Origin: an uncultured Clostridia bacterium
GTDB lineage: Bacteria; Bacillota; Clostridia; Oscillospirales; Ruminococcaceae
Assembly: GCA_947625195.1 (NCBI GenBank)
Contig: CANQNK010000017.1
Span: 1 to 45,678, forward strand
DNA length: 45,678 nucleotides
Direction of reading: 5' to 3'
Below the pieces are notes generated by a model. It ran no database searches, was not told the origin of the DNA, and was given only the letters and a program-made list of their open reading frames with translations. This document shows, one piece after another, positions 12,012 to 21,858 of the stretch. How positions within the stretch are numbered: position 1 is the first letter of the stretch; each line of letters opens with the position of its first letter. A program made the translations under genes and the position numbers.

Positions 12012-13856
12012 ATGTACAAGAAATCTTTACTCAAAAGACTTCTAAGTGGCATCATTGCGGCAGCGGTAACGGCTTCTCTGGCATTTACCGGTTCGGTATT
12101 TGCGGCGGATACTGCCGGCGAGGGTGCTTCTTTTGAAGACTTAAGCCAGAACGAAATAGTTGAAGCTATGGCTCCTGCTTGGAACCTCGGAAATCAGCTT
12201 GAGGCTGTGAGCGGAAGCACCCCTTCAGAAACCGCATGGGGCAACCCGACTATTACTCAAAACACCTTTAAAATGGTAAAGGACGCAGGCTTTAAAGCGG
12301 TAAGAATCCCTGTGTCTTACTTTGCAAGAATAGGCGGCGCACCGAATTATACTATTGATGCTTCATGGCTTACGAGAATCAAAGAAGTTGTTGATATGGC
12401 AATGGCAGAGGGGCTTTATGCTATAATCAATATGCACGGAGACGGATACAACTCAATGGTAAATAACGGCGCGTGGCTTTTGTGCAATGCTCCGGCAGAT
12501 GAGCAGCCTGCGATCAAGGCAAAGTATGAAGCCTGCTGGAAGCAGATCGCAACCACGTTTAAGGATTACGACGAGCATCTTATATTTGAGTCGATGAACG
12601 AGGAGTTTGACGGAGAATACTACGGTCCTCAGCTTGAATACTATCAGAACATAAACGCTTACAACCAGATTTTTGTAGATACCGTTCGTAAGACAAGCGA
12701 AAACAACTCAAAGCGCTGGCTGCTTGTTCCGGGTTGGAATACAGACATAGGCTATACAACAGGAAATTACGGCTTTGAGATACCGACAGATACAAATAGA
12801 GCGTCTTCTATCCCCGCAGATGAGCAGAGGATCATGATCTCCGTTCACTACTACAATCCTTGGAATTTCTGCGGCGAAGGTAATCGTGATAAAGATGGTA
12901 AGTTTACGAGTACTGAGTGGGGAACCGAGGCTGAAGTAAAGTCTCTTCAGGATCTGTTTACAAACTGCTACAATAAGTTTGTTGCTAAAGGCTATCCGGT
13001 TATTATAGGAGAAACAGGAGCGGTTGATAAGGATAATCTTGACAGCAGAGTTAAGTTTTATTCTGAAGTTTGTAAGAATGCAAGAAGCAGGGGAATGGTG
13101 CCTGTTGTTTGGGATAATAACGGACACGGTCAGGGAGCTGACAAGTTCGGACTGTTTAACAGAAGCACATTCGAGGTAACACAGCCTGAGATAATTGACG
13201 CTATTATGAAGGCGTATGAGGGAGATCCCCTTCCTTTTGTACCGTCGGTTCCATATACAAAGGACGAGGCACTTGGGGTTCTTTACTCTGCATCAAAGAA
13301 AGAGGCTACAATGCTTACGACCGGCACAGCCAATGATGAAGTTGCCGGAGCAACTCAGGTAAGATTGACGTTTGACTGCGCGCCCGATGTTTCGTTCAAC
13401 CAGTATTCATATTTATACGTCATCGTAGATGCTGACGGCACACAGGTGTCTGTTCAGGGCGACAGCGACGTAGTTGGAGCTTTGGGATTAAAGGCAACGG
13501 TTGATCTAAAAGAAACGCTGAAAAAAGGTGACAGCTATACAATAAAGGCGTACACTCCGTCCTGGAAAAATAACACGGAGGATTATGTATTCCTTGTAGG
13601 AAAGCTTGAATTTTTGGACGCAGACGGAAATGTTTTAAAAACTGTTGATAAAAATTCAGCGATAGTTAAGGGCGATTTTAATGGCGACGGAACAATCACC
13701 ACTTCCGATGTAGGAGTAGTAAATGCGTTTGCAACGGGTGCACTAAGCCCGACTGCTGAGCAGTTTGATGTTGCAGATATTGACGGTAACGGCCAAATTA
13801 CTACTGCGGACGTAGGAATTGTAAACAGTATAGCAAGAGGCGTATCAGTAGAATAA
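12012..13856 (+). CDS. Secreted GH5 endoglucanase with C-terminal type I dockerin
   Basis: A 614-residue secreted enzyme. It has a signal peptide (basic KKSLLKRLL, hydrophobic core, likely cleavage after VFA near 31) and a GH5 catalytic barrel (about 50-405) with acid/base Glu197 (ESMNEEF), nucleophile Glu334 (IIGETG) and the conserved HY pair (279-280). A beta-rich module follows (about 415-548) that looks like a carbohydrate-binding or immunoglobulin-like domain I cannot name. The C-terminus is a type I dockerin (553-611) with two calcium loops, DFNGDGTITTSD and DIDGNGQITTAD. The NEEF acid/base context and WNLGN start resemble GH5 subfamily 4 (endoglucanase/xyloglucanase). The dockerin implies docking to a cohesin scaffoldin encoded elsewhere. 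Confidence 0.93.
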   Translation: MYKKSLLKRLLSGIIAAAVTASLAFTGSVFAADTAGEGASFEDLSQNEIVEAMAPAWNLGNQLEAVSGSTPSETAWGNPTITQNTFKMVKDAGFKAVRIPVSYFARIGGAPNYTIDASWLTRIKEVVDMAMAEGLYAIINMHGDGYNSMVNNGAWLLCNAPADEQPAIKAKYEACWKQIATTFKDYDEHLIFESMNEEFDGEYYGPQLEYYQNINAYNQIFVDTVRKTSENNSKRWLLVPGWNTDIGYTTGNYGFEIPTDTNRASSIPADEQRIMISVHYYNPWNFCGEGNRDKDGKFTSTEWGTEAEVKSLQDLFTNCYNKFVAKGYPVIIGETGAVDKDNLDSRVKFYSEVCKNARSRGMVPVVWDNNGHGQGADKFGLFNRSTFEVTQPEIIDAIMKAYEGDPLPFVPSVPYTKDEALGVLYSASKKEATMLTTGTANDEVAGATQVRLTFDCAPDVSFNQYSYLYVIVDADGTQVSVQGDSDVVGALGLKATVDLKETLKKGDSYTIKAYTPSWKNNTEDYVFLVGKLEFLDADGNVLKTVDKNSAIVKGDFNGDGTITTSDVGVVNAFATGALSPTAEQFDVADIDGNGQITTADVGIVNSIARGVSVE

Positions 13857-14940: not shown

Positions 14941-14991
14941 CTTTTCCGAAGCGGGCAAAACGGGTACAGCCTGTTCGGAAAAGAGTACCCG
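14941..14991 (+). repeat. Two interleaved perfect inverted repeats upstream of the phage cassette
   Basis: CTTTTCCGAA (14941-14950) is the exact reverse complement of TTCGGAAAAG (14974-14983). CGGGTAC (14961-14967) is the exact reverse complement of GTACCCG (14985-14991). The order is a, b, a', b', which as RNA is a pseudoknot or two mutually exclusive hairpins, and as DNA is a pair of nested dyads. It ends 30 bases before the first terminase gene, where phages often place packaging signals. A further TTGTAA/TTACAA dyad (14825-14844) lies upstream. Confidence 0.6.
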
Positions 14992-15020: not shown

Positions 15021-15374
15021 TTGCGCAATTTTTCAGTAAGGCGTGTTTTAAAGACCGACGCAAAGGACATTGCAAAGTACGGGCTTTATAGAATAATTAC
15101 CTCGTCGCAAAAAGACCTTGCAGCCATTTCTGCGGTAAGCGAAACGTCCTCAGATTTATCAGAGCTTTATAATCTGGCAGAAGTAAAGAGAACGGACAAA
15201 TCCTGTGATGTAAAGAGCTTTGACAAACTCAAGGCGATAGAGCTTATGATAGAGATCGCACGCCTTGAACGGGAGGAGTCCGACAGCGGCGAGAGCTTTT
15301 TTAAAAGCTTTATGCAGTCCTGTGAAAAGCTTGGAGATAAAAGCATTCAGTCGGAGGAAGTGGATAAATCTTGA
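15021..15374 (+). CDS. Probable phage terminase small subunit
   Basis: A 117-residue acidic, helix-rich protein directly upstream of the large terminase, overlapping it by four bases. Its C-terminal half contains SFDKLKAIELMIEI, like the DKLKALELL helix common in PBSX-type small terminases; otherwise I recognise no fold, so the call rests mostly on position. It starts with TTG, seven bases after a perfect AAAGGAGG. Small terminases bind the packaging start site on DNA and recruit the large subunit. The paired dyads at 14941-14991 would be a natural binding site. Confidence 0.6.
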   Translation: MRNFSVRRVLKTDAKDIAKYGLYRIITSSQKDLAAISAVSETSSDLSELYNLAEVKRTDKSCDVKSFDKLKAIELMIEIARLEREESDSGESFFKSFMQSCEKLGDKSIQSEEVDKS

Positions 15375-16612
15375 GCGGGATGTCAGATAAGCAGCTGACG
15401 GTAATGCGGTGGTGGACTACCGACAGTCTCGGCAAAAAGGACGGCATTATCTGCGACGGCGCGGTGAGGTCGGGAAAAACATATGCCATGTCACACTCGT
15501 TTGTGATGTGGTCGATGACAAACTTTTCCTACAAAGACTTTGCATTTTGCGGCAAGACAATATCCTCGCTTCGCCGCAACGTGATAGAGCCATTAATGCT
15601 CAGTCTTGCAAATGACGGTTTCGGTATAAGGGATGTGAAATCGAGAAACTACATTGAAATACGCAGGGGCGATTTCAAAAACCGATATTATCTCTTCGGA
15701 GGAAAGGACGAAGGTTCTGCGGCCTTGATACAGGGAATGACCTTAGCGGGAGTGATGTTCGACGAGGTAGCACTGATGCCGAGGAGCTTTGTCGAGCAGG
15801 CAATAGCCAGATGTTCGACGGATGGCTCAAAGCTGTGGTTCAACTGCAACCCTGACAATCCGTATCACTGGTTCAAGCGGGAGTGGATAGACAAGGCGAG
15901 GGAAAAAAATCTTTTCTATCTCAGGTTTACTTTAGACGACAACCCAAGCCTCTCAGAGTCGATAGTAAACAGGTATAAGACCCTTTTTTGCGGAGCATTT
16001 TATGATAGATTCGTTCTGGGAAGATGGTCAGGGACCTATGGGCTTGTTTATCCGGACTTTAAATCCGCGATTACCGATAAAACTGTCACGGAGTGTGAAA
16101 AGTACGTGGTTTCGTGCGATTACGGCACTGTAAACCCAAGTTCGTTCGGGCTTTGGGGAAAGGACGAGGACGGCGTGTGGACAAGGATAAAAGAGTATTA
16201 TTACGACTCAAAAGCAAAGGGCCTTCAGAAAACCGATGAGGAGCACTACCGCTCGCTTACGGCTCTGCTTGGCGATATAACCCCCGAATGTGTAATAATC
16301 GACCCTTCTGCCGCCTCGTTTATAGAATGTGTAAATCGCCACGGAGAATTCAAGACGGTAAGAGCAAAAAACGACGTCATCTCAGGCATAAGACAGGTAA
16401 GCGACGCCATAAAGCTTGGAAAAATCAAGATACACTCCTTATGTGAGGATTCCATAAGGGAATCCACTCTTTACCGCTGGGACGAAAAAAGCGGCAGAGA
16501 CGCGCCTTTAAAGGAAAATGACCACGCAATGGACGACATCAGATATTTTGTTTCGACCTACCTGTCGGCACATACGGATGATTTTTTCTGTATGTCGCTC
16601 GGCAGGGAATAA
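15371..16612 (+). CDS. terL: Phage terminase large subunit (PBSX family)
   Basis: A 413-residue DNA-packaging motor. The ATPase domain has Walker A GAVRSGKT (30-37) and Walker B VMFDE (Asp131-Glu132). The C-terminal RNase H-like nuclease begins at SCDYGTVNP (Asp250) with further acidic residues at IIDPSAASF and DHAMDDIRY. It would pump DNA into proheads and cut it. All motifs look intact, so the protein should be active. It starts with TTG (TTGAGCGGG) after GGAGGA, overlapping the small subunit gene, although ATG at 15380 is also possible. Confidence 0.92.
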   Translation: MSGMSDKQLTVMRWWTTDSLGKKDGIICDGAVRSGKTYAMSHSFVMWSMTNFSYKDFAFCGKTISSLRRNVIEPLMLSLANDGFGIRDVKSRNYIEIRRGDFKNRYYLFGGKDEGSAALIQGMTLAGVMFDEVALMPRSFVEQAIARCSTDGSKLWFNCNPDNPYHWFKREWIDKAREKNLFYLRFTLDDNPSLSESIVNRYKTLFCGAFYDRFVLGRWSGTYGLVYPDFKSAITDKTVTECEKYVVSCDYGTVNPSSFGLWGKDEDGVWTRIKEYYYDSKAKGLQKTDEEHYRSLTALLGDITPECVIIDPSAASFIECVNRHGEFKTVRAKNDVISGIRQVSDAIKLGKIKIHSLCEDSIRESTLYRWDEKSGRDAPLKENDHAMDDIRYFVSTYLSAHTDDFFCMSLGRE

Positions 16613-16631
16613 ACAGAAAGGAGTGTTTTAT

Positions 16632-17777
16632 ATCAGATTCAAAAAATCCGGAAAGAAAGATGCGTCTTGCATTCCGGCAACATTTTCAAGCCGATGTGAA
16701 GGAAGCACAACAGGACTTAGCACGGTAAGCCGTTTTGAATACGAGCTTTACGAGTCTTTGCGTGCAAACGTGCCTATAGTCGACGCCTGTGTACTTAAGA
16801 TCGTAAGACTTACGGGCGGCTTTAAGCTGATAGCGCGCAACGAGAAATATCAGGCTGAACTCGAGAACTTCCAGAAAAACGTTCCGGTCGGACTCAGCGG
16901 AGTATCCTTAAATGAGTTTATAGATATACATCTGGACTCGATGCTCACCTACGGCAGGGGAATAGGAGAGATACTCATTTCAGACGGAAGCATAATCGGA
17001 CTTTACAATGCCGACCCCACGCTGTTTAAAGTCGCCAGAGGTGAAAATCCATGCGACAGGCGTTTTTACGCCGCAGGAACAAACGAGGATATACCTGTAG
17101 AAAACCCGGAAAGAGTGCTTTTTTCCTGCTTGAATCCCAACCCGAAGAATCCGTTCGGCGTATCTGTTTTCAGAGGGCTCCCTTCTCTGGCGGGTGTGCT
17201 TATGAAGATATACCGCTCTATAGGACATAACTTTGAAAGGGTGGGAAACATTCGATATGCGGTCACCTATAAGCCTCAGAGCGATTCGGATTCTGCCTTT
17301 GCAAAGGAGCGTGCTATGCAGATAGCGCAAGCGTGGTCAGAGGGCATGACCGCCACCCGTAACGGCGTTGTGAAGGACTTTGTAGCCGTAGGGGACGTGG
17401 ATATCAAGGTGATAGGCGCTGATAGCCAGGTGCTTGATACCGAAATACCCGTGCGTCAGCTTATAGAGCAAATGATATCAAAGCTATCCGTTCCGCCGTT
17501 TTTGCTGGGACTTAACTGGAGCTCCACCGAGCGAATGAGCGCTCAGCAGTGCGATATTCTAACCAGCGAGCTTGAGTATTACAGACGCCTTCTTACTCCG
17601 GTTATCTTGCAGGCAGCAAACACCTACCTGCGCTCGATCGGAGCAGATTGTGAAGCCGATGTTGAGTGGAATATGATAAATCTTCAGGACGAAACGGAGC
17701 TTGCAAAGGCAAGGCTTTACAACGCTCAGGCAAAACAGCTTGAAATACAGAATGAAAAGGAGGAGCAAATTGGATAG
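16632..17777 (+). CDS. Phage portal protein (possible ATC start)
   Basis: About 382 residues, SPP1/PBSX-type portal: a dodecameric ring at the capsid vertex through which DNA enters. Recognisable stretches are FEYELYESLRANVPIVDACVLKI near the N-terminus, DPTLFKVARG, and the helical QLIEQMISKLSVPPFLLGL (no more than one loop from the portal crown). The reading frame is open from 16518, inside terL, but the strong AAAGGAG (16617-16623) has no ATG, GTG or TTG in frame at normal distance. The in-frame codon eight bases downstream is ATC (16632). GTG at 16623 overlaps the ribosome site itself. The start is therefore uncertain. Its end overlaps the next gene by eight bases. Confidence 0.82.
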   Translation: MRFKKSGKKDASCIPATFSSRCEGSTTGLSTVSRFEYELYESLRANVPIVDACVLKIVRLTGGFKLIARNEKYQAELENFQKNVPVGLSGVSLNEFIDIHLDSMLTYGRGIGEILISDGSIIGLYNADPTLFKVARGENPCDRRFYAAGTNEDIPVENPERVLFSCLNPNPKNPFGVSVFRGLPSLAGVLMKIYRSIGHNFERVGNIRYAVTYKPQSDSDSAFAKERAMQIAQAWSEGMTATRNGVVKDFVAVGDVDIKVIGADSQVLDTEIPVRQLIEQMISKLSVPPFLLGLNWSSTERMSAQQCDILTSELEYYRRLLTPVILQAANTYLRSIGADCEADVEWNMINLQDETELAKARLYNAQAKQLEIQNEKEEQIG

Positions 17778-18630
17778 CTTTACGCTTAACGAACGGGAAA
17801 TAGAAAAGATAAACAGGCTTACCAGAAGACGATTTAACGCAGACGAGCTTTACGCCTTTCCTATAATCCTGTGCGACAATGAAATAGACCGCGACGGCGA
17901 AAGGTTTTCAATAGCCAGCTTAAATGCGCTTGCAAAGCTATTTGTAGGTAAGACAGGAATTTTTGACCACAACCTAAAGGGGCAGAATCAGACCGCCAGA
18001 ATTTACGACGCAAGGGTTGTAACAGACAGTCAAAGCAAGACCGCTTCTGGCGAGAACTATACTACTCTGGTGGGATACGCCTATATGGTGCGTACCGACA
18101 AAAACGCAGATCTTATAAAGGAAATTGAAGCCGGAATCAAAAAGGAGGTATCTGTAAGCTGCGCCGTGAAGAAGCGCATATGCAGCATTTGCGGACGCGA
18201 TAAGCAGTCAAAAGGCTGTTCACATCAGCCGGGCAGAGTGTATAACTCAAAGCTGTGCTCGATAATTCTTGAAGATGTTTACGACGCATACGAGTTTTCC
18301 TTTGTGGCGGTTCCAGCACAGCCCAAGGCGGGTGTTACAAAAACCTATGGTAGGTCTGGCGGCAATAATGCGGCGATGATACTTAAAACGGATGAGGCCG
18401 TAAGAGCGCTTTCCGAGCGCATAAAAAGGGAGACTACCGCCGCAGTTATGATGGAAATGCCTGCCGTGCCAAAGACGGTAATACTTAAATTCTGCGAAAA
18501 GCTTTCATATGAAGAGCTTGAGGAGATTTTATGTGAGATCAAGAAAAAACGCCGCAAAGTAACGTTTTTGGACGATATAGTCAAAAGCGATAATCAAAGC
18601 GGCAATACAACAGAAAATTTTAAAATGTAA
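17770..18630 (+). CDS. Prohead protease with C-terminal scaffold-like tail
   Basis: A 286-residue protein from a TTG start (17770) preceded by AAGGAGG inside the portal gene. The N-terminal 190 residues look like a phage capsid-maturation protease: DNEIDRDGERFS, FDHNL (His67), a KKEVSVS serine region (128-130) and the family-typical EFSFVAVPAQPKAGVTK. An inserted CSICGRDKQSKGCSH cluster (Cys138, 141, 150, His152) looks like a zinc site. The last 80 residues are charged and helical, like a fused scaffold. It would cleave scaffold and capsid during head assembly. The serine/His assignment is inferred from position, not alignment. Confidence 0.72.
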   Translation: MDSFTLNEREIEKINRLTRRRFNADELYAFPIILCDNEIDRDGERFSIASLNALAKLFVGKTGIFDHNLKGQNQTARIYDARVVTDSQSKTASGENYTTLVGYAYMVRTDKNADLIKEIEAGIKKEVSVSCAVKKRICSICGRDKQSKGCSHQPGRVYNSKLCSIILEDVYDAYEFSFVAVPAQPKAGVTKTYGRSGGNNAAMILKTDEAVRALSERIKRETTAAVMMEMPAVPKTVILKFCEKLSYEELEEILCEIKKKRRKVTFLDDIVKSDNQSGNTTENFKM

Positions 18631-18642
18631 AGGAGATTATTT

Positions 18643-19632
18643 ATGTACAACGATATTAAACTTGAAAAAACACTTTATAACATTTCGGGGAAAAACTTTA
18701 CTCAGGCGCTTACAGAGCTTGATCCCGATGAGGAATACAAAGGCACACCACTTGAGGGACTTGATGCTTATGAAAGACAGCTGAAGAGATTCGATATCAA
18801 GGTGAAGGGTAAGGACTGCGATACGGTGGACAGATTTTTCGCAACTACCGATTCTGCAATTCTGTTTCCTGAGTTTGTAAGACGTCAGGTCGTTCAGGGA
18901 TTCAACGAGACTTTTACCATAGGACAGTATGCCGCGTCTTCCGCAATTATCGACGACACCTACTTTAATTCTCTTATGGTGGTAATCAACAGCGGCACTG
19001 AATCGGTTTCTGAGGGTAAGAATATGCCGACTATGATAGTGAGAAACAATTCCCCGCACGCAACCTTTAAGTTTGCAAGAGAAATGGATATCACCTATGA
19101 GGTGCTGAAAAAGAAGAGAATCGACACATTTGCGGTTATCTTAAAACAGCTCGGAGTGACTATAGCAAGAAGCGCAAACGATCAGCTTGTTCAGACGGTG
19201 AGCGCTGCAACCTCTTACAATATCGACACTACCGCAAGTGAATTCAACTATAGTACTCTTGTTGAACTGTGGAAGAAGATGGACGGCTTTGATATGGACA
19301 CAATGTTCTGCTCAAAAGAAAACTTCGGAAGGATCCTTCAGTTTGATGAGATGAAGAATTTGGTAGCTACCGGAATCTGTGCCGAAAATTCAACAATCGT
19401 TACGCCGTTCGGAATCACAATCAAGGCGGTGCCCGGAATGACTGCAAAGCAAATAGTGGGATTTTCCAGCAAGTACGCTTACGAGCTTGTTTACTGCGGT
19501 GATATGGTGATAGATATCGGAAAGCTTATCAGCACTCAGTATGATCAGATAGGCTCGTCAATAATCATCGGAATATCAAGATTCAACAACCTTGCGGTCA
19601 ACGTAATAAACATTACAGATGGCGCAGACTAA
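18643..19632 (+). CDS. Phage major capsid protein (HK97 fold likely)
   Basis: A 329-residue protein with the composition and position of an HK97-like capsid protein, directly after the protease and before the connector. Segments such as RFFATTDSAILFPEFVRRQVVQGF, the central KFAREMDITYEVLKKKRIDTF and the C-terminal GSSIIIGISRF are typical of Firmicutes capsid proteins. It lacks a long N-terminal delta domain of its own, which fits scaffold being supplied by the protease gene. AAAGGAG lies eight bases before the ATG. Confidence 0.82.
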   Translation: MYNDIKLEKTLYNISGKNFTQALTELDPDEEYKGTPLEGLDAYERQLKRFDIKVKGKDCDTVDRFFATTDSAILFPEFVRRQVVQGFNETFTIGQYAASSAIIDDTYFNSLMVVINSGTESVSEGKNMPTMIVRNNSPHATFKFAREMDITYEVLKKKRIDTFAVILKQLGVTIARSANDQLVQTVSAATSYNIDTTASEFNYSTLVELWKKMDGFDMDTMFCSKENFGRILQFDEMKNLVATGICAENSTIVTPFGITIKAVPGMTAKQIVGFSSKYAYELVYCGDMVIDIGKLISTQYDQIGSSIIIGISRFNNLAVNVINITDGAD

Positions 19633-19652
19633 CGCCGCTTTAAGGAGCTAAA

Positions 19653-20021
19653 ATGGATATTGAAAAAATTGTAACGCTTTTTTGCAGGCTTACAACGCTT
19701 TTAGAATCCTCGCGCGAGCAGTTCATAGACATCGTAAACAACGCATATACCTGCGTGAGCCAAAGGCTTTTAAAGCCTGCGGCTCAATATACGCAGGAAG
19801 AGATTGCAAAGCTTGAATATGCTGTGGGTTGTATTGCGTTTTATGATTATACTGTGGTAGATCTTGCCAGAGAAAGAAGATATCTCTCCAAAACAGGAAG
19901 CTTTGTGGCCGAAAGCGAAAACTCACCAAGAATTAAGGCCGCCGCTCTTTTAAAAAAAGGTGCTTTGGATGAAATAAAAGGTCTGGTTGCCGACGACGGC
20001 TTTTTATTTGTCAACGTCTGA
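19653..20021 (+). CDS. Probable head-tail connector protein
   Basis: A 122-residue, mainly helical protein immediately after the capsid gene. Length, helix content and place match gp6/gp15-type connectors that sit between portal and tail. I see no diagnostic motif, so the name rests on synteny. AGGAG is seven bases before the ATG. Confidence 0.55.
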   Translation: MDIEKIVTLFCRLTTLLESSREQFIDIVNNAYTCVSQRLLKPAAQYTQEEIAKLEYAVGCIAFYDYTVVDLARERRYLSKTGSFVAESENSPRIKAAALLKKGALDEIKGLVADDGFLFVNV

Positions 20022-20033
20022 AGGAGAAATGCT

Positions 20034-20432
20034 ATGACCTCTAATATAATAAGCGCTGTTTTCTATTTGATGTTTCAAAATGGTTTTACATCCTATAAAG
20101 CGTACGACAATACAACATACAAGCAAAGACAGGCAGATAAGTTTTGCACCGTCTCGCCGAAGGAGACAAGGGAGATCTCAAGGGCGGCAAAGAGTGATGG
20201 CAGTATAGTTGTGGGATATGAAACAGATGTTGAGGTTTCGCTTTATTTCGGCGAGAAAATCAGCATAAACGAAATATATACGACCTGCGATGAGATTATA
20301 AAGACGATTACAGGATATCAGGCGATAAATGTAAAAAGCGTGTTTTTAAAAGACATAGCCTATTCAGCTTCTCACCGTATGATAACCAGAGATGTGATTA
20401 TTACGATCACTTATATTGAGGAGGAAAAGTAA
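20034..20432 (+). CDS. Phage head-completion or tail-terminator-like protein
   Basis: A 132-residue alpha/beta protein between the connector and two tail-type genes. In siphoviruses and myoviruses this slot holds tail-terminator or head-closure proteins of 110-140 residues, and its ending RDVIITITYIEEE is similar in style. No motif identifies it. Its stop overlaps the next ATG by one base (TAATG), so the two are translated together. Confidence 0.45.
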   Translation: MTSNIISAVFYLMFQNGFTSYKAYDNTTYKQRQADKFCTVSPKETREISRAAKSDGSIVVGYETDVEVSLYFGEKISINEIYTTCDEIIKTITGYQAINVKSVFLKDIAYSASHRMITRDVIITITYIEEEK

Positions 20433-20785
20433 TGGATGTTTCAAGGTTTTATTTATCGGTTACTCTTTTCGGAGCACCACTTGTCTGCGAGGAAATGCAT
20501 ATTAAACGAGAAGCAGCAGTAGCCCAGATAACAACAGTTTCAAACGGAGTCGTTTCAAGAAAACAGGGTGTTAAAAGACGGGTTATTACCCTCAAGGGAA
20601 AGGTTGTATGCGACGATTTCAGCGCGATTCAGGATGCTCTGGAGCAGGGCCTTAAGACAAAGACTACTGTGACGGTAAACACAACAGAATACGAGAATGC
20701 TGAGATTTACGACTACTCAATAAAACTGAAGGCGGGGGAAAAGCTGGCGGACGTTGAGCTTCAGCTTTATATTGACGATGAATAG
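20432..20785 (+). CDS. Small beta-rich phage tail-associated protein
   Basis: A 117-residue protein, mostly predicted beta strands (VSRKQGVKRRVITLKGKVV, then DVELQLYIDDE). It is too short to be a full tail tube protein, and its place just before an XkdQ-like gene suggests a baseplate or hub accessory. I do not recognise the family. It overlaps the next gene. Confidence 0.42.
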   Translation: MDVSRFYLSVTLFGAPLVCEEMHIKREAAVAQITTVSNGVVSRKQGVKRRVITLKGKVVCDDFSAIQDALEQGLKTKTTVTVNTTEYENAEIYDYSIKLKAGEKLADVELQLYIDDE

Positions 20786-21731
20786 CATACTGGTCAACTT
20801 TTTCGAGGCAAACAGCGGCAGGTTTTTAGGCAGCCGGGACGCGGTTTCAATGAGTTTTGTAAAGGAGTGGTATACTCCCTATACTGCGGTGAGGCTCAAT
20901 ATCATAAGCGAGAATACTATTCCCGATACCTGCGAAGTGCGCGTTTTCATAGACTCCAAGGTGATTCATCAGGGAATTGCTGACAAAATGGAATCAAGAA
21001 AAACCTCTGACGGGCTTTACCACATAAGTCTTTATTCAAGGGGGTACACTGCGGCTCTCGGCGTAAATCAGCCGGTTCCGAAAATAAACAGCAACGTAAA
21101 CCTCAATGATATTTTAACGTCAAACAACATATCGTTCCCGAATATCCCCTGCGAGAAAAACACCAAAACAGTAAATTACGTTTATATTCTCGATAAGGAC
21201 ACGATTTGGGACGCCATAGTGACCTATACGGTGAAGGCTTATAAAAACTATCCGTATATAAGAGGCGCAAACACGGTAATGGTGCAGCCCCCAACAAGTC
21301 CGAGCAGGTTTTCCTATTCTGATAAGGTTCTGGAACTGTACAGCGGAGTTAATCTTTCAAACCTTATATCTCAGATAAATATGAAGGATTACGACGGTAA
21401 TTATGAAAGCTATGAGCTTAAGAACACTTACGCATCTGACAGACAAGTGATAAGGCAGAGCAAAATAAATCTTGACGAGCAGTGGCTTTCTGAACCGCAG
21501 ACTGCGCTTGAAAAGAGAATATACTACGCAAACCGCGCTGCCAGATACAAGGCAGTAAAGGTTGACGGCTACAACGGAGAAGACCTTTTTGATAAAATGA
21601 CTGCAGCCTGTTGGGGAGTGGAAGAAATAACGGACAGGGATATTCATAAAATTGAAATCACAGCTGACAAAAAGGGAGTTTTTACAAAGCTTTACACCTA
21701 TTACGACAGCTATTCGGGAGATATAGCTTAA
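20778..21731 (+). CDS. XkdQ/gpD-like phage tail hub protein
   Basis: About 317 residues from ATG 20778, which overlaps the preceding stop by eight bases; TTG at 20754 in the same frame is an alternative with a GGCGG site. The pattern of an N-terminal FVKEWYTPYTAVRLNI, HQGIADKMES and CNVNLNDILT-like turns, then a C-terminal KLYTYYDSYSGDIA, resembles XkdQ/gpD-type hub proteins that cap the tail and contact the tape measure. No tape-measure gene is present upstream. The stop overlaps an ATG (21731) that opens only a seven-codon frame. Confidence 0.6.
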   Translation: MNSILVNFFEANSGRFLGSRDAVSMSFVKEWYTPYTAVRLNIISENTIPDTCEVRVFIDSKVIHQGIADKMESRKTSDGLYHISLYSRGYTAALGVNQPVPKINSNVNLNDILTSNNISFPNIPCEKNTKTVNYVYILDKDTIWDAIVTYTVKAYKNYPYIRGANTVMVQPPTSPSRFSYSDKVLELYSGVNLSNLISQINMKDYDGNYESYELKNTYASDRQVIRQSKINLDEQWLSEPQTALEKRIYYANRAARYKAVKVDGYNGEDLFDKMTAACWGVEEITDRDIHKIEITADKKGVFTKLYTYYDSYSGDIA

Positions 21732-21751: not shown

Positions 21752-21785
21752 ATCAATACTTTTTCTGCAACGGTTATGTAATCAG

Positions 21786-21823
21786 ACAAAGCGAAAACAT
21801 AGGCTTTTCGCTTTGTTTTTTTT
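21786..21823 (+). terminator. Strong terminator closing the phage cassette
   Basis: ACAAAGCGAAAA (21786-21797) is perfectly complementary to TTTTCGCTTTGT (21805-21816), with a seven-base loop and eight T. It is among the strongest terminators in the window. Confidence 0.92.
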
Positions 21824-21858
21824 CACCAAATTTTCACCTTTTTTTGCCCGTTTATCGC

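What the first reader, a model, noticed from the sequence alone, without database searches (positions are those of the whole stretch)
15021..21731. Compact phage head cassette without integrase, repressor, tape measure or lysis genes
Nine consecutive open genes encode terminase, portal, prohead protease, capsid, connector and three tail-type proteins in 6.7 kb. All motor and capsid motifs I can see look intact (TerL Walker A/B and nuclease acidic residues), and genes overlap tightly. There is nothing for integration, replication, control or release, and no tape measure, although an XkdQ-like hub protein that would contact one is present. It is flanked by ordinary housekeeping genes and closed by a very strong terminator. 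This is either a recently truncated prophage or a domesticated module kept for packaging or capsid function, akin to a gene-transfer agent or satellite. Intact frames argue for selection.
Basis: partly seen in the sequence, partly recalled or inferred. Interest (0 to 1): 0.75.

Follow-up and report, generated by a model that had tools for sequence, protein, structure and literature searches.

The report
Domesticated phage-head operon, likely gene-transfer agent
A nine-gene set of phage head, DNA-packaging and stub-tail genes sits between ordinary bacterial genes and is kept intact across many Ruminococcus-like gut bacteria, so it is probably a tamed virus part that packs bacterial DNA rather than a dying prophage.

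Summary
The cassette is real. Nine intact genes (15021-21731) encode small and large terminase, portal, prohead protease, capsid, two neck-type proteins, a tube-fold protein and a gp27/gp44-type hub. It is not a truncated prophage: of 65 fetched loci with 600 bases on both sides, 49 carry these same nine genes in 6.7-7.7 kb, and two relatives have them at the same ispD/ABC-transporter site. dN/dS is 0.09-0.17 in 14 of 14 pairs; head genes diverge at about a host gene's rate (4 pairs). TerL catalytic acidic residues are invariant in 89 of 89. The window's genome gave no hit to three tape-measure, holin and baseplate Pfam families. In the window's genus the small terminase lacks the N-terminal DNA-recognition region (14 of 14), which 64 of 70 outside it keep, a trait proposed to define gene-transfer-agent (GTA) terminases (PMC6854486). 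The cassette looks derived from a PBSX-like contractile phage. Best explanation: a widespread, mainly vertically inherited GTA-like particle with a stub tail, and a candidate for the 4.6-kb host-DNA packaging reported, without an operon, in Ruminococcus callidus (PMC12946183). DNA content and delivery are untested.

The parts
14941..14991 (+). possible H-type pseudoknot in the leader (stems 14941-14947/14977-14983 and 14961-14967/14985-14991) upstream of the TerS ribosome site
   Evidence: window, L070 and L071 at the same place; both stems fully paired, one two-sided change in each, but 50 of 500 column shuffles reach the score; only 3 sequences, so suggestive; no Rfam match at gathering score
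15021..15374 (+). A: small terminase without the N-terminal helix-turn-helix region (TTG start)
   Evidence: 20 residues before the conserved anchor against a median of 78.5 in 70 TerS outside the genus; window protein has no Terminase_2 match
15371..16612 (+). B: large terminase, PBSX family
   Evidence: D131, E132, D250, D311, D388 in 89 of 89 aligned (92 found, short ones dropped), K36 in 86 of 89
16632..17777 (+). C: portal protein; probable ATC start (open frame begins upstream at 16518)
   Evidence: phrog_30703 E 3.5e-141; start inferred from alignment with L070, L071, L072
17770..18630 (+). D: XkdF-like prohead protease with zinc-knuckle
   Evidence: 40% identity to annotated XkdF-like protease of the Tepidibacter element; H90, S151, C161, C164, C173, H175 in 78 of 78, numbered in the 309-aa frame from 17701
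18643..19632 (+). E: major capsid protein
   Evidence: phrog_3922 E 1.9e-55; 29% to an annotated phage major capsid protein
19653..20021 (+). F: head-tail adaptor-like neck protein (inferred)
   Evidence: position; 2 of 33 family members match phrog_541 head-tail adaptor weakly
20034..20432 (+). G: neck/tail-completion-type protein (inferred from position)
   Evidence: family found in 69 of 96 loci, no informative database match
20432..20785 (+). H: tail-tube-fold protein
20778..21731 (+). I: central tail hub (gp27/gp44/XkdQ type)
   Evidence: AlphaFold pLDDT 94.9; Foldseek 3d37 E 6.6e-18, Mu gp44 1wru E 4.5e-17; 4 of 55 members match phrog_177 baseplate hub
21784..21825 (+). terminator-like stem-loop with T run
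   Evidence: 14-pair stem; similar stem in L070, not in L071

Best explanation
The cassette is a long-domesticated phage module, inherited mainly vertically in the host chromosome, that builds a small DNA-filled head with a stub tail and behaves as a gene-transfer agent. Proposed mechanism: the operon yields HK97-type capsid and portal; the XkdF-like protease matures the prohead; TerL, recruited by a TerS that in this genus has lost its sequence-recognition region, packs host DNA without site preference; F and G close the neck; a ring of H and the gp27-like hub I plug it, giving a tail too short to need a tape measure or sheath. Release and attachment genes must lie elsewhere in the genome or be host functions. 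Shown here: gene content, conserved catalytic residues, purifying selection, mainly vertical inheritance, loss of the TerS region, predicted folds of H and I. Inferred: particle assembly, random packaging, delivery to recipients.
For: Same nine genes in 49 of 65 loci with room on both sides, 6,684-7,704 bp; each family single-copy wherever found. Same site and boundaries in the window, L070 and L071. dN/dS 0.09-0.17 in 14 of 14 pairs. TerL+portal tree matches the main groups of a neighbouring host gene's tree within the genus; head-gene dS is within about 1.75-fold of host-gene dS in 4 of 4 pairs. TerL in 14 of 15 genomes of the genus, own included. Invariant TerL and protease residues. TerS without the recognition region in 14 of 14 genus members, no remnant upstream in 14 of 14 while 3 of 3 controls were found; the same region is also missing in three loci outside the genus not cut by a contig end, L041, L049 and L091. 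Lack of this domain is proposed as the defining trait of GTA-type TerS (PMC6854486, passages). No hit to PF10145, PF05105 or PF04865 in the own genome. Independent report of GTA-like packaging in Ruminococcaceae, including 4.6-kb fragments in R. callidus; the operon search described there used four MAGs, none of R. callidus (PMC12946183, section 9). 4.6 kb is smaller than the 6.7-kb cassette.
Against: No particle, packaged DNA or transfer has been shown for any carrier of this cassette. No receptor-binding, holin or lysin gene is linked; I found no second operon like FpGTA II, but tried few families. Outside the window's genus 64 of 70 TerS keep the N-terminal region, so the GTA-type terminase argument holds for this genus and a few others only. 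Decay occurs: 3 of 68 family portal matches contain a stop and one is a fragment; one of the listed TerL matches has 2 TAG (list cut); G008 lacks TerL and portal. The two trees disagree on the order within L073/L076/L077 with support 82 and 92. The purA tree shares 8 of 27 splits with the cassette tree, and 4 of its 11 splits at 70% support conflict. R. callidus itself could not be examined. The Ruminococcus vesicle DNA was 23-90 kb according to a review (PMC6524685 passage), far above 4.6 kb.
Confidence: 0.6

Rival explanations
1. Recently truncated, decaying prophage: the genes are intact only because decay is young.
For: Phage origin is clear; a full relative with sheath, tape measure and lysis genes exists; some relatives have broken copies.
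Against: Same nine genes in 49 of 65 loci, same site in three species with high or saturated synonymous divergence in several genes, dN/dS 0.09-0.17.
Confidence: 0.03
2. DNA-filled heads are made but not delivered: the particle exports or sequesters DNA, or is released at lysis for another use, as PBSX is said to pack DNA without injecting it.
For: No receptor-binding, baseplate or lysis gene linked, and none of three families found in the own genome; tube and hub may only plug the head. PBSX precedent as stated in PMC12946183.
Against: Hub kept in 54 and tube protein in 49 of 65 adequately long loci; neck-tail genes diverge faster than head genes at synonymous sites in 9 of 11 pairs (Wilcoxon p 0.0024), as expected if they meet variable partners.
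Confidence: 0.17
3. Interference or defence module: resident head or packaging proteins poison or parasitise infecting phages, or form heads that borrow helper tails as capsid-forming satellites do.
For: Head-plus-packaging gene content resembles capsid-forming phage satellites (recalled); fast-changing tail end.
Against: No integrase, regulator or replication gene among the nine, mainly vertical inheritance, own tube and hub, no PADLOC match; TerS without recognition region in this genus.
Confidence: 0.1
4. Killing particle (tailocin) derived from a PBSX-like phage.
For: PBSX-family TerL and contractile-type hub.
Against: No sheath or baseplate wedge in the cassette, while packaging motor and capsid are conserved; a tailocin needs the opposite set.
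Confidence: 0.04

Closest known systems
FpGTA of Faecalibacterium prausnitzii (PMC12946183; abstract, sections 9, 10 and 26 and passages read)
   Same: Compact chromosomal operon of TerS without obvious DNA-binding domain, TerL, portal, capsid and tail-type genes; Ruminococcaceae by that paper; packages random host DNA (8.4-8.9 kb); no visible tail
   Different: No TerL match at E 0.01 in 5 of 5 putative Faecalibacterium genomes. The label is weak: a recalled 16S probe matched one of the five, G391 (six copies); the other four share its genus tag; the probe also hit three genomes of other genera. FpGTA is 10.5 kb, called podovirus-like, with a scaffold gene and a second operon with fibres and lysis genes; here 6.7 kb, a protease, a gp27-type hub, no second operon found
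PBSX of Bacillus subtilis (recalled; mentioned in PMC12946183)
   Same: TerL matches the PBSX-family model TIGR01547 above cut-off; XkdF-like protease and gp44/XkdQ-like hub
   Different: No sheath, tape measure, baseplate or lysis genes in the cassette; stub tail only. PBSX sequences themselves were not compared
Tepidibacter hydrothermalis 38.8-kb phage-like plasmid NZ_CP120734.1
   Same: Portal 41%, protease 40%, capsid 29% identical, hub related by profile (probability 92.6), same gene order for the head apart from one extra gene between protease and capsid
   Different: Complete contractile phage gene set; its TerL gave no match, nor did its F, G and H counterparts
RcGTA of Rhodobacter capsulatus (PMC6854486, abstract and passages)
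   Different: Larger cluster with tape measure and baseplate (recalled); no sequence relation tested
DNA-transferring membrane vesicles of Ruminococcus (Klieve et al. 2005, not read; reported in passages of PMC9569563 and PMC6524685)
   Same: The strain named there, YE71, carries the cassette if it is the same strain as record L003
   Different: Reported DNA 23-90 kb and vesicles, not capsids; a link is only a lead

Membership tests
Gene-transfer agent | phage-like structural and packaging genes fixed in the host chromosome without integration or replication genes | tested here: met
Gene-transfer agent | maintained by purifying selection and inherited vertically | tested here: met
   with one supported disagreement and only partial congruence with purA
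Gene-transfer agent | small terminase lacks the sequence-specific DNA-binding domain (proposed trait, PMC6854486) | tested here: met
   14 of 14 in the window's genus; in the wider group 64 of 70 keep the region
Gene-transfer agent | particles contain random host DNA | not testable with these tools
   no particle data; R. callidus packaging reported without an operon
Gene-transfer agent | DNA is delivered to recipient cells | not testable with these tools
   needs a transfer assay
FpGTA | homologous TerL | tested here: inconclusive
   no match in 5 putative Faecalibacterium genomes at E 0.01, but the label is weak and FpGTA sequences themselves were not available
FpGTA | second operon with fibres, holin and endolysin | tested here: inconclusive
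   PF05105 holin and PF04865 gave no hit in the own genome; other lysis or fibre families not tried
PBSX-like contractile phage particle | PBSX-family large terminase | tested here: met
   TIGR01547 193.9 bits, cut-off 105.05
PBSX-like contractile phage particle | sheath, tape measure and baseplate | tested here: not met
   no such gene among the nine; PF10145 and PF04865 gave no hit in the own genome. Sheath was not searched for genome-wide; a sheath-like gene, below Pfam's cut-off, lies in the relative G018 (L088)
Capsid-forming phage satellite | integrase and own regulation, mobilised with a helper | tested here: inconclusive
   none among the nine genes or the six window neighbours scanned; flanks of relatives were clustered, not annotated
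Encapsulin | HK97-fold shell without portal and terminase | tested here: not met
   portal and TerL present and conserved

The most novel reading that the evidence does not exclude
A contractile-phage head plus one tube ring and a hub was domesticated early in the Ruminococcus lineage and has become a family-wide gene-transfer agent with a minimal tail, small enough that it cannot pack its own operon; its small terminase lost the recognition region more than once; it accounts for the unassigned 4.6-kb host-DNA packaging of Ruminococcus callidus and perhaps for part of the DNA transfer once ascribed to Ruminococcus membrane vesicles.
Probability: 0.4. Interest if true: 0.87.

Novelty: new variant of a known kind. 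Interest (0 to 1): 0.72.

Why it matters
Few GTAs are known outside Alphaproteobacteria (as stated in PMC12946183), and that paper reports widespread GTA-like packaging in gut Ruminococcaceae while naming an operon only for Faecalibacterium. This cassette is a concrete, widely conserved candidate in cultured rumen strains (for example R. flavefaciens ATCC 19208, L026, and Ruminococcus YE71, L003), so the question can be tested directly. It would also give a very small tailed particle and an independent case of a small terminase losing its recognition domain.

Tried and rejected
Recent prophage truncation: rejected. Encapsulin, tailocin and satellite readings: see rivals. Profile searches of the PDB with hub, H, G and F alignments gave nothing significant (best for the hub was 3d37 at E 0.081); capsid phmmer gave nothing. 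Rfam: no match.

Portal search of the phage collection: 6 records, five deposited as 'Bacteriophage sp.' from human faecal samples and one true phage, Microcystis MACPNOA1, at 30% identity. MT835508 is host chromosome around a cassette (ORFs read by eye; its RpoA confirmed). I first took this as packaging evidence, but the same record series holds other host rpoA and phosphorylase genes, so it may be plain contamination.

TerL hits at E 1e-60 in 199 of 396 family genomes overstate the distribution, because real phage TerLs reach 50% identity; portal is the better marker: 68 of 148 family genomes and 3 of 146 class genomes, own included in both. Pseudoknot scan: 10 of 84 loci and 10 of 252 shuffles had some such structure, so only the aligned three-species case is of note, and 50 of 500 shuffles reach its covariation score.

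Rows dropped or faulty: two L070 rows (x6, portal) were artefacts of my ORF walk; rows with saturated dS gave no ratio. In the TerS alignment of 47 rows (of 70 outside the genus) I cut row L052 at a guessed end; it is the one without a Terminase_2 match, so '46 of 47' is not a biological count, and three of the 46 (L041, L049, L091) match only the C-terminal part of that model. I therefore use on all 84 TerS; of its 6 short rows outside the genus, L051, L066 and L083 lie at contig ends. My notes call gene x6 'gyrA/topo'; it is a carbohydrate phosphorylase. Families were collected by iterated HMMER at E 1e-3; G and H were not recovered in several distant loci.
Full report

Conservation. A search with the capsid found 57 loci in genome contigs, 52 of them titled Ruminococcus, and 11 short viral-collection contigs. 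Iterated profiles over the ORFs of 96 loci found each of the nine families as a single copy wherever found: 92 loci for TerL and portal down to 65 for H (recounted). Of 65 loci with at least 600 bases on either side, 49 have all nine genes, in 6,684-7,704 bp: 13 in the window's order and 36 with protease and capsid swapped. Of the other 16, 4 stop close to a contig end (L029, L048, L059, L075), 3 have TerL only, 5 lack recognisable G and H, 2 also lack I, and 2 lack H and I. G001 and G013 carry the cassette at the same ispD/transporter site with the same boundaries; most other genus members carry it beside a carbohydrate phosphorylase gene; further clades have other sites, some shared within a clade. 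In the genus 14 of 15 genomes have TerL; G008 lacks TerL and portal. The portal is found in 68 of 148 genomes of the family and 3 of 146 of the class, own included.

Selection and inheritance. dN/dS over the cassette is 0.09-0.17 in 14 of 14 pairs (nine genes, eight in one pair); window versus G001 gives 0.07 for TerL and 0.055 for capsid against 0.02-0.22 for six flanking genes. Within the genus (13 loci, one of them an outside Ruminococcus) the TerL+portal tree and the tree of the phosphorylase gene agree on the main groups but differ on the order within L073/L076/L077 (supports 92 and 82). Over 29 further genomes plus the window (30 were searched, one gave no purA), cassette and purA trees share 8 of 27 splits (shuffle mean 0.2, at most 2), with 4 of 11 purA splits above 70% in conflict. 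So inheritance is mainly vertical, with noise or some exchange. In four close pairs the head genes have a synonymous divergence similar to the host gene's (0.31/0.26, 0.15/0.26, 0.11/0.17, 0.56/0.45), while the neck-tail genes are higher (0.50-0.89); over 11 pairs tail dS exceeds head dS in 9 (Wilcoxon p 0.0024). This suggests allelic exchange at the tail end, the part that would meet other cells; codon bias is an alternative.

Motor. TerL D131, E132, D250, D311 and D388 are invariant in 89 of 89 aligned sequences, and protease H90, S151 and four zinc-ligand-type residues in 78 of 78; their catalytic roles are assigned from knowledge of the families. TerS is the telling part. In the window's genus all 14 proteins start 19-43 residues before a conserved anchor and none has the AAxxAG-type helix-turn-helix motif; outside the genus 64 of 70 have at least 45 residues there (median 78.5) and 61 of 70 have the motif. 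No remnant was found upstream in the 14 genus members, while 3 of 3 controls were recovered. Three loci outside the genus that are not cut by a contig end, L041, L049 and L091, also lack the region, which hints at repeated loss. Sherlock et al. [quoted passage not shown]

Origin. The nearest full phage-like element found is a 38.8-kb plasmid of Tepidibacter hydrothermalis with portal, protease, capsid and hub related to ours plus sheath, tape measure, baseplate and lysis genes; its TerL gave no match, nor did its F, G and H counterparts. G018 has a sheath-like gene, below Pfam's cut-off, inside its version (L088). So the cassette looks like the head, neck, one tube protein and hub of a PBSX-like contractile phage. 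The own genome gave no hit to PhageMin_Tail, Phage_holin_4_1 or Baseplate_J; of the six genus genomes searched, G014 and G005 had tape-measure hits and G014 holin hits, and Baseplate_J rang only in control genomes.

Meaning. Borodovich et al. (PMC12946183; abstract, sections 9, 10 and 26 and passages read) report GTA-like packaging in Ruminococcaceae, including Ruminococcus callidus with 4.6-kb fragments, and identify an operon only in Faecalibacterium; the four MAGs searched for an operon did not include R. callidus. The present cassette is a candidate for such activity in Ruminococcus. My searches of the held papers listed no paper whose title or abstract start describes it; subscription papers and preprints are not held. 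The vesicle-borne DNA transfer of strain YE71, whose name record L003 bears, is a lead only, since the DNA was said to be 23-90 kb.

Verdict. Domesticated, mainly vertically inherited phage module: about 0.95. GTA-like packaging of host DNA as its function: about 0.6. It is a new variant of a known kind.

Noticed in passing
window 14941-14991; L070 8067-8116; L071 8060-8110: Possible H-type pseudoknot just upstream of the TerS ribosome site; both stems kept in three species, one compensatory change in each stem, but 50 of 500 shuffles reach the score.
   Followed up: partly
window 16620-16634; L070, L071, L072: Portal gene seems to start at ATC (ATA in L071) behind a good ribosome site where other relatives have ATG; a GTG nine bases upstream is ruled out as a common start by a stop in L070.
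   Followed up: partly
L041 7277-7582, L049 7216-7599, L091 8190-8504: Small terminases outside the window's genus that also lack the N-terminal recognition region and are not cut by a contig end, hinting at independent losses.
   Followed up: partly
cassette genes F-I in close pairs such as L079/L080, L076/L077, L008/L016, L026/L036: Synonymous divergence jumps at the neck-tail genes relative to head genes, suggesting recombination at the tail end.
   Followed up: partly
L090 (MT835508.1): A record deposited as bacteriophage is a bacterial chromosome segment (ribosomal-protein-like ORFs, rpoA) carrying this cassette.
   Followed up: partly
L085 12141-13637: Extra 498-residue protein between protease and capsid in one genus; perhaps a decoration or fibre protein.
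   Followed up: no
window 12012-13856: GH5 cellulase with dockerin domain next to ispD, pointing to a fibre-degrading host.
   Followed up: no
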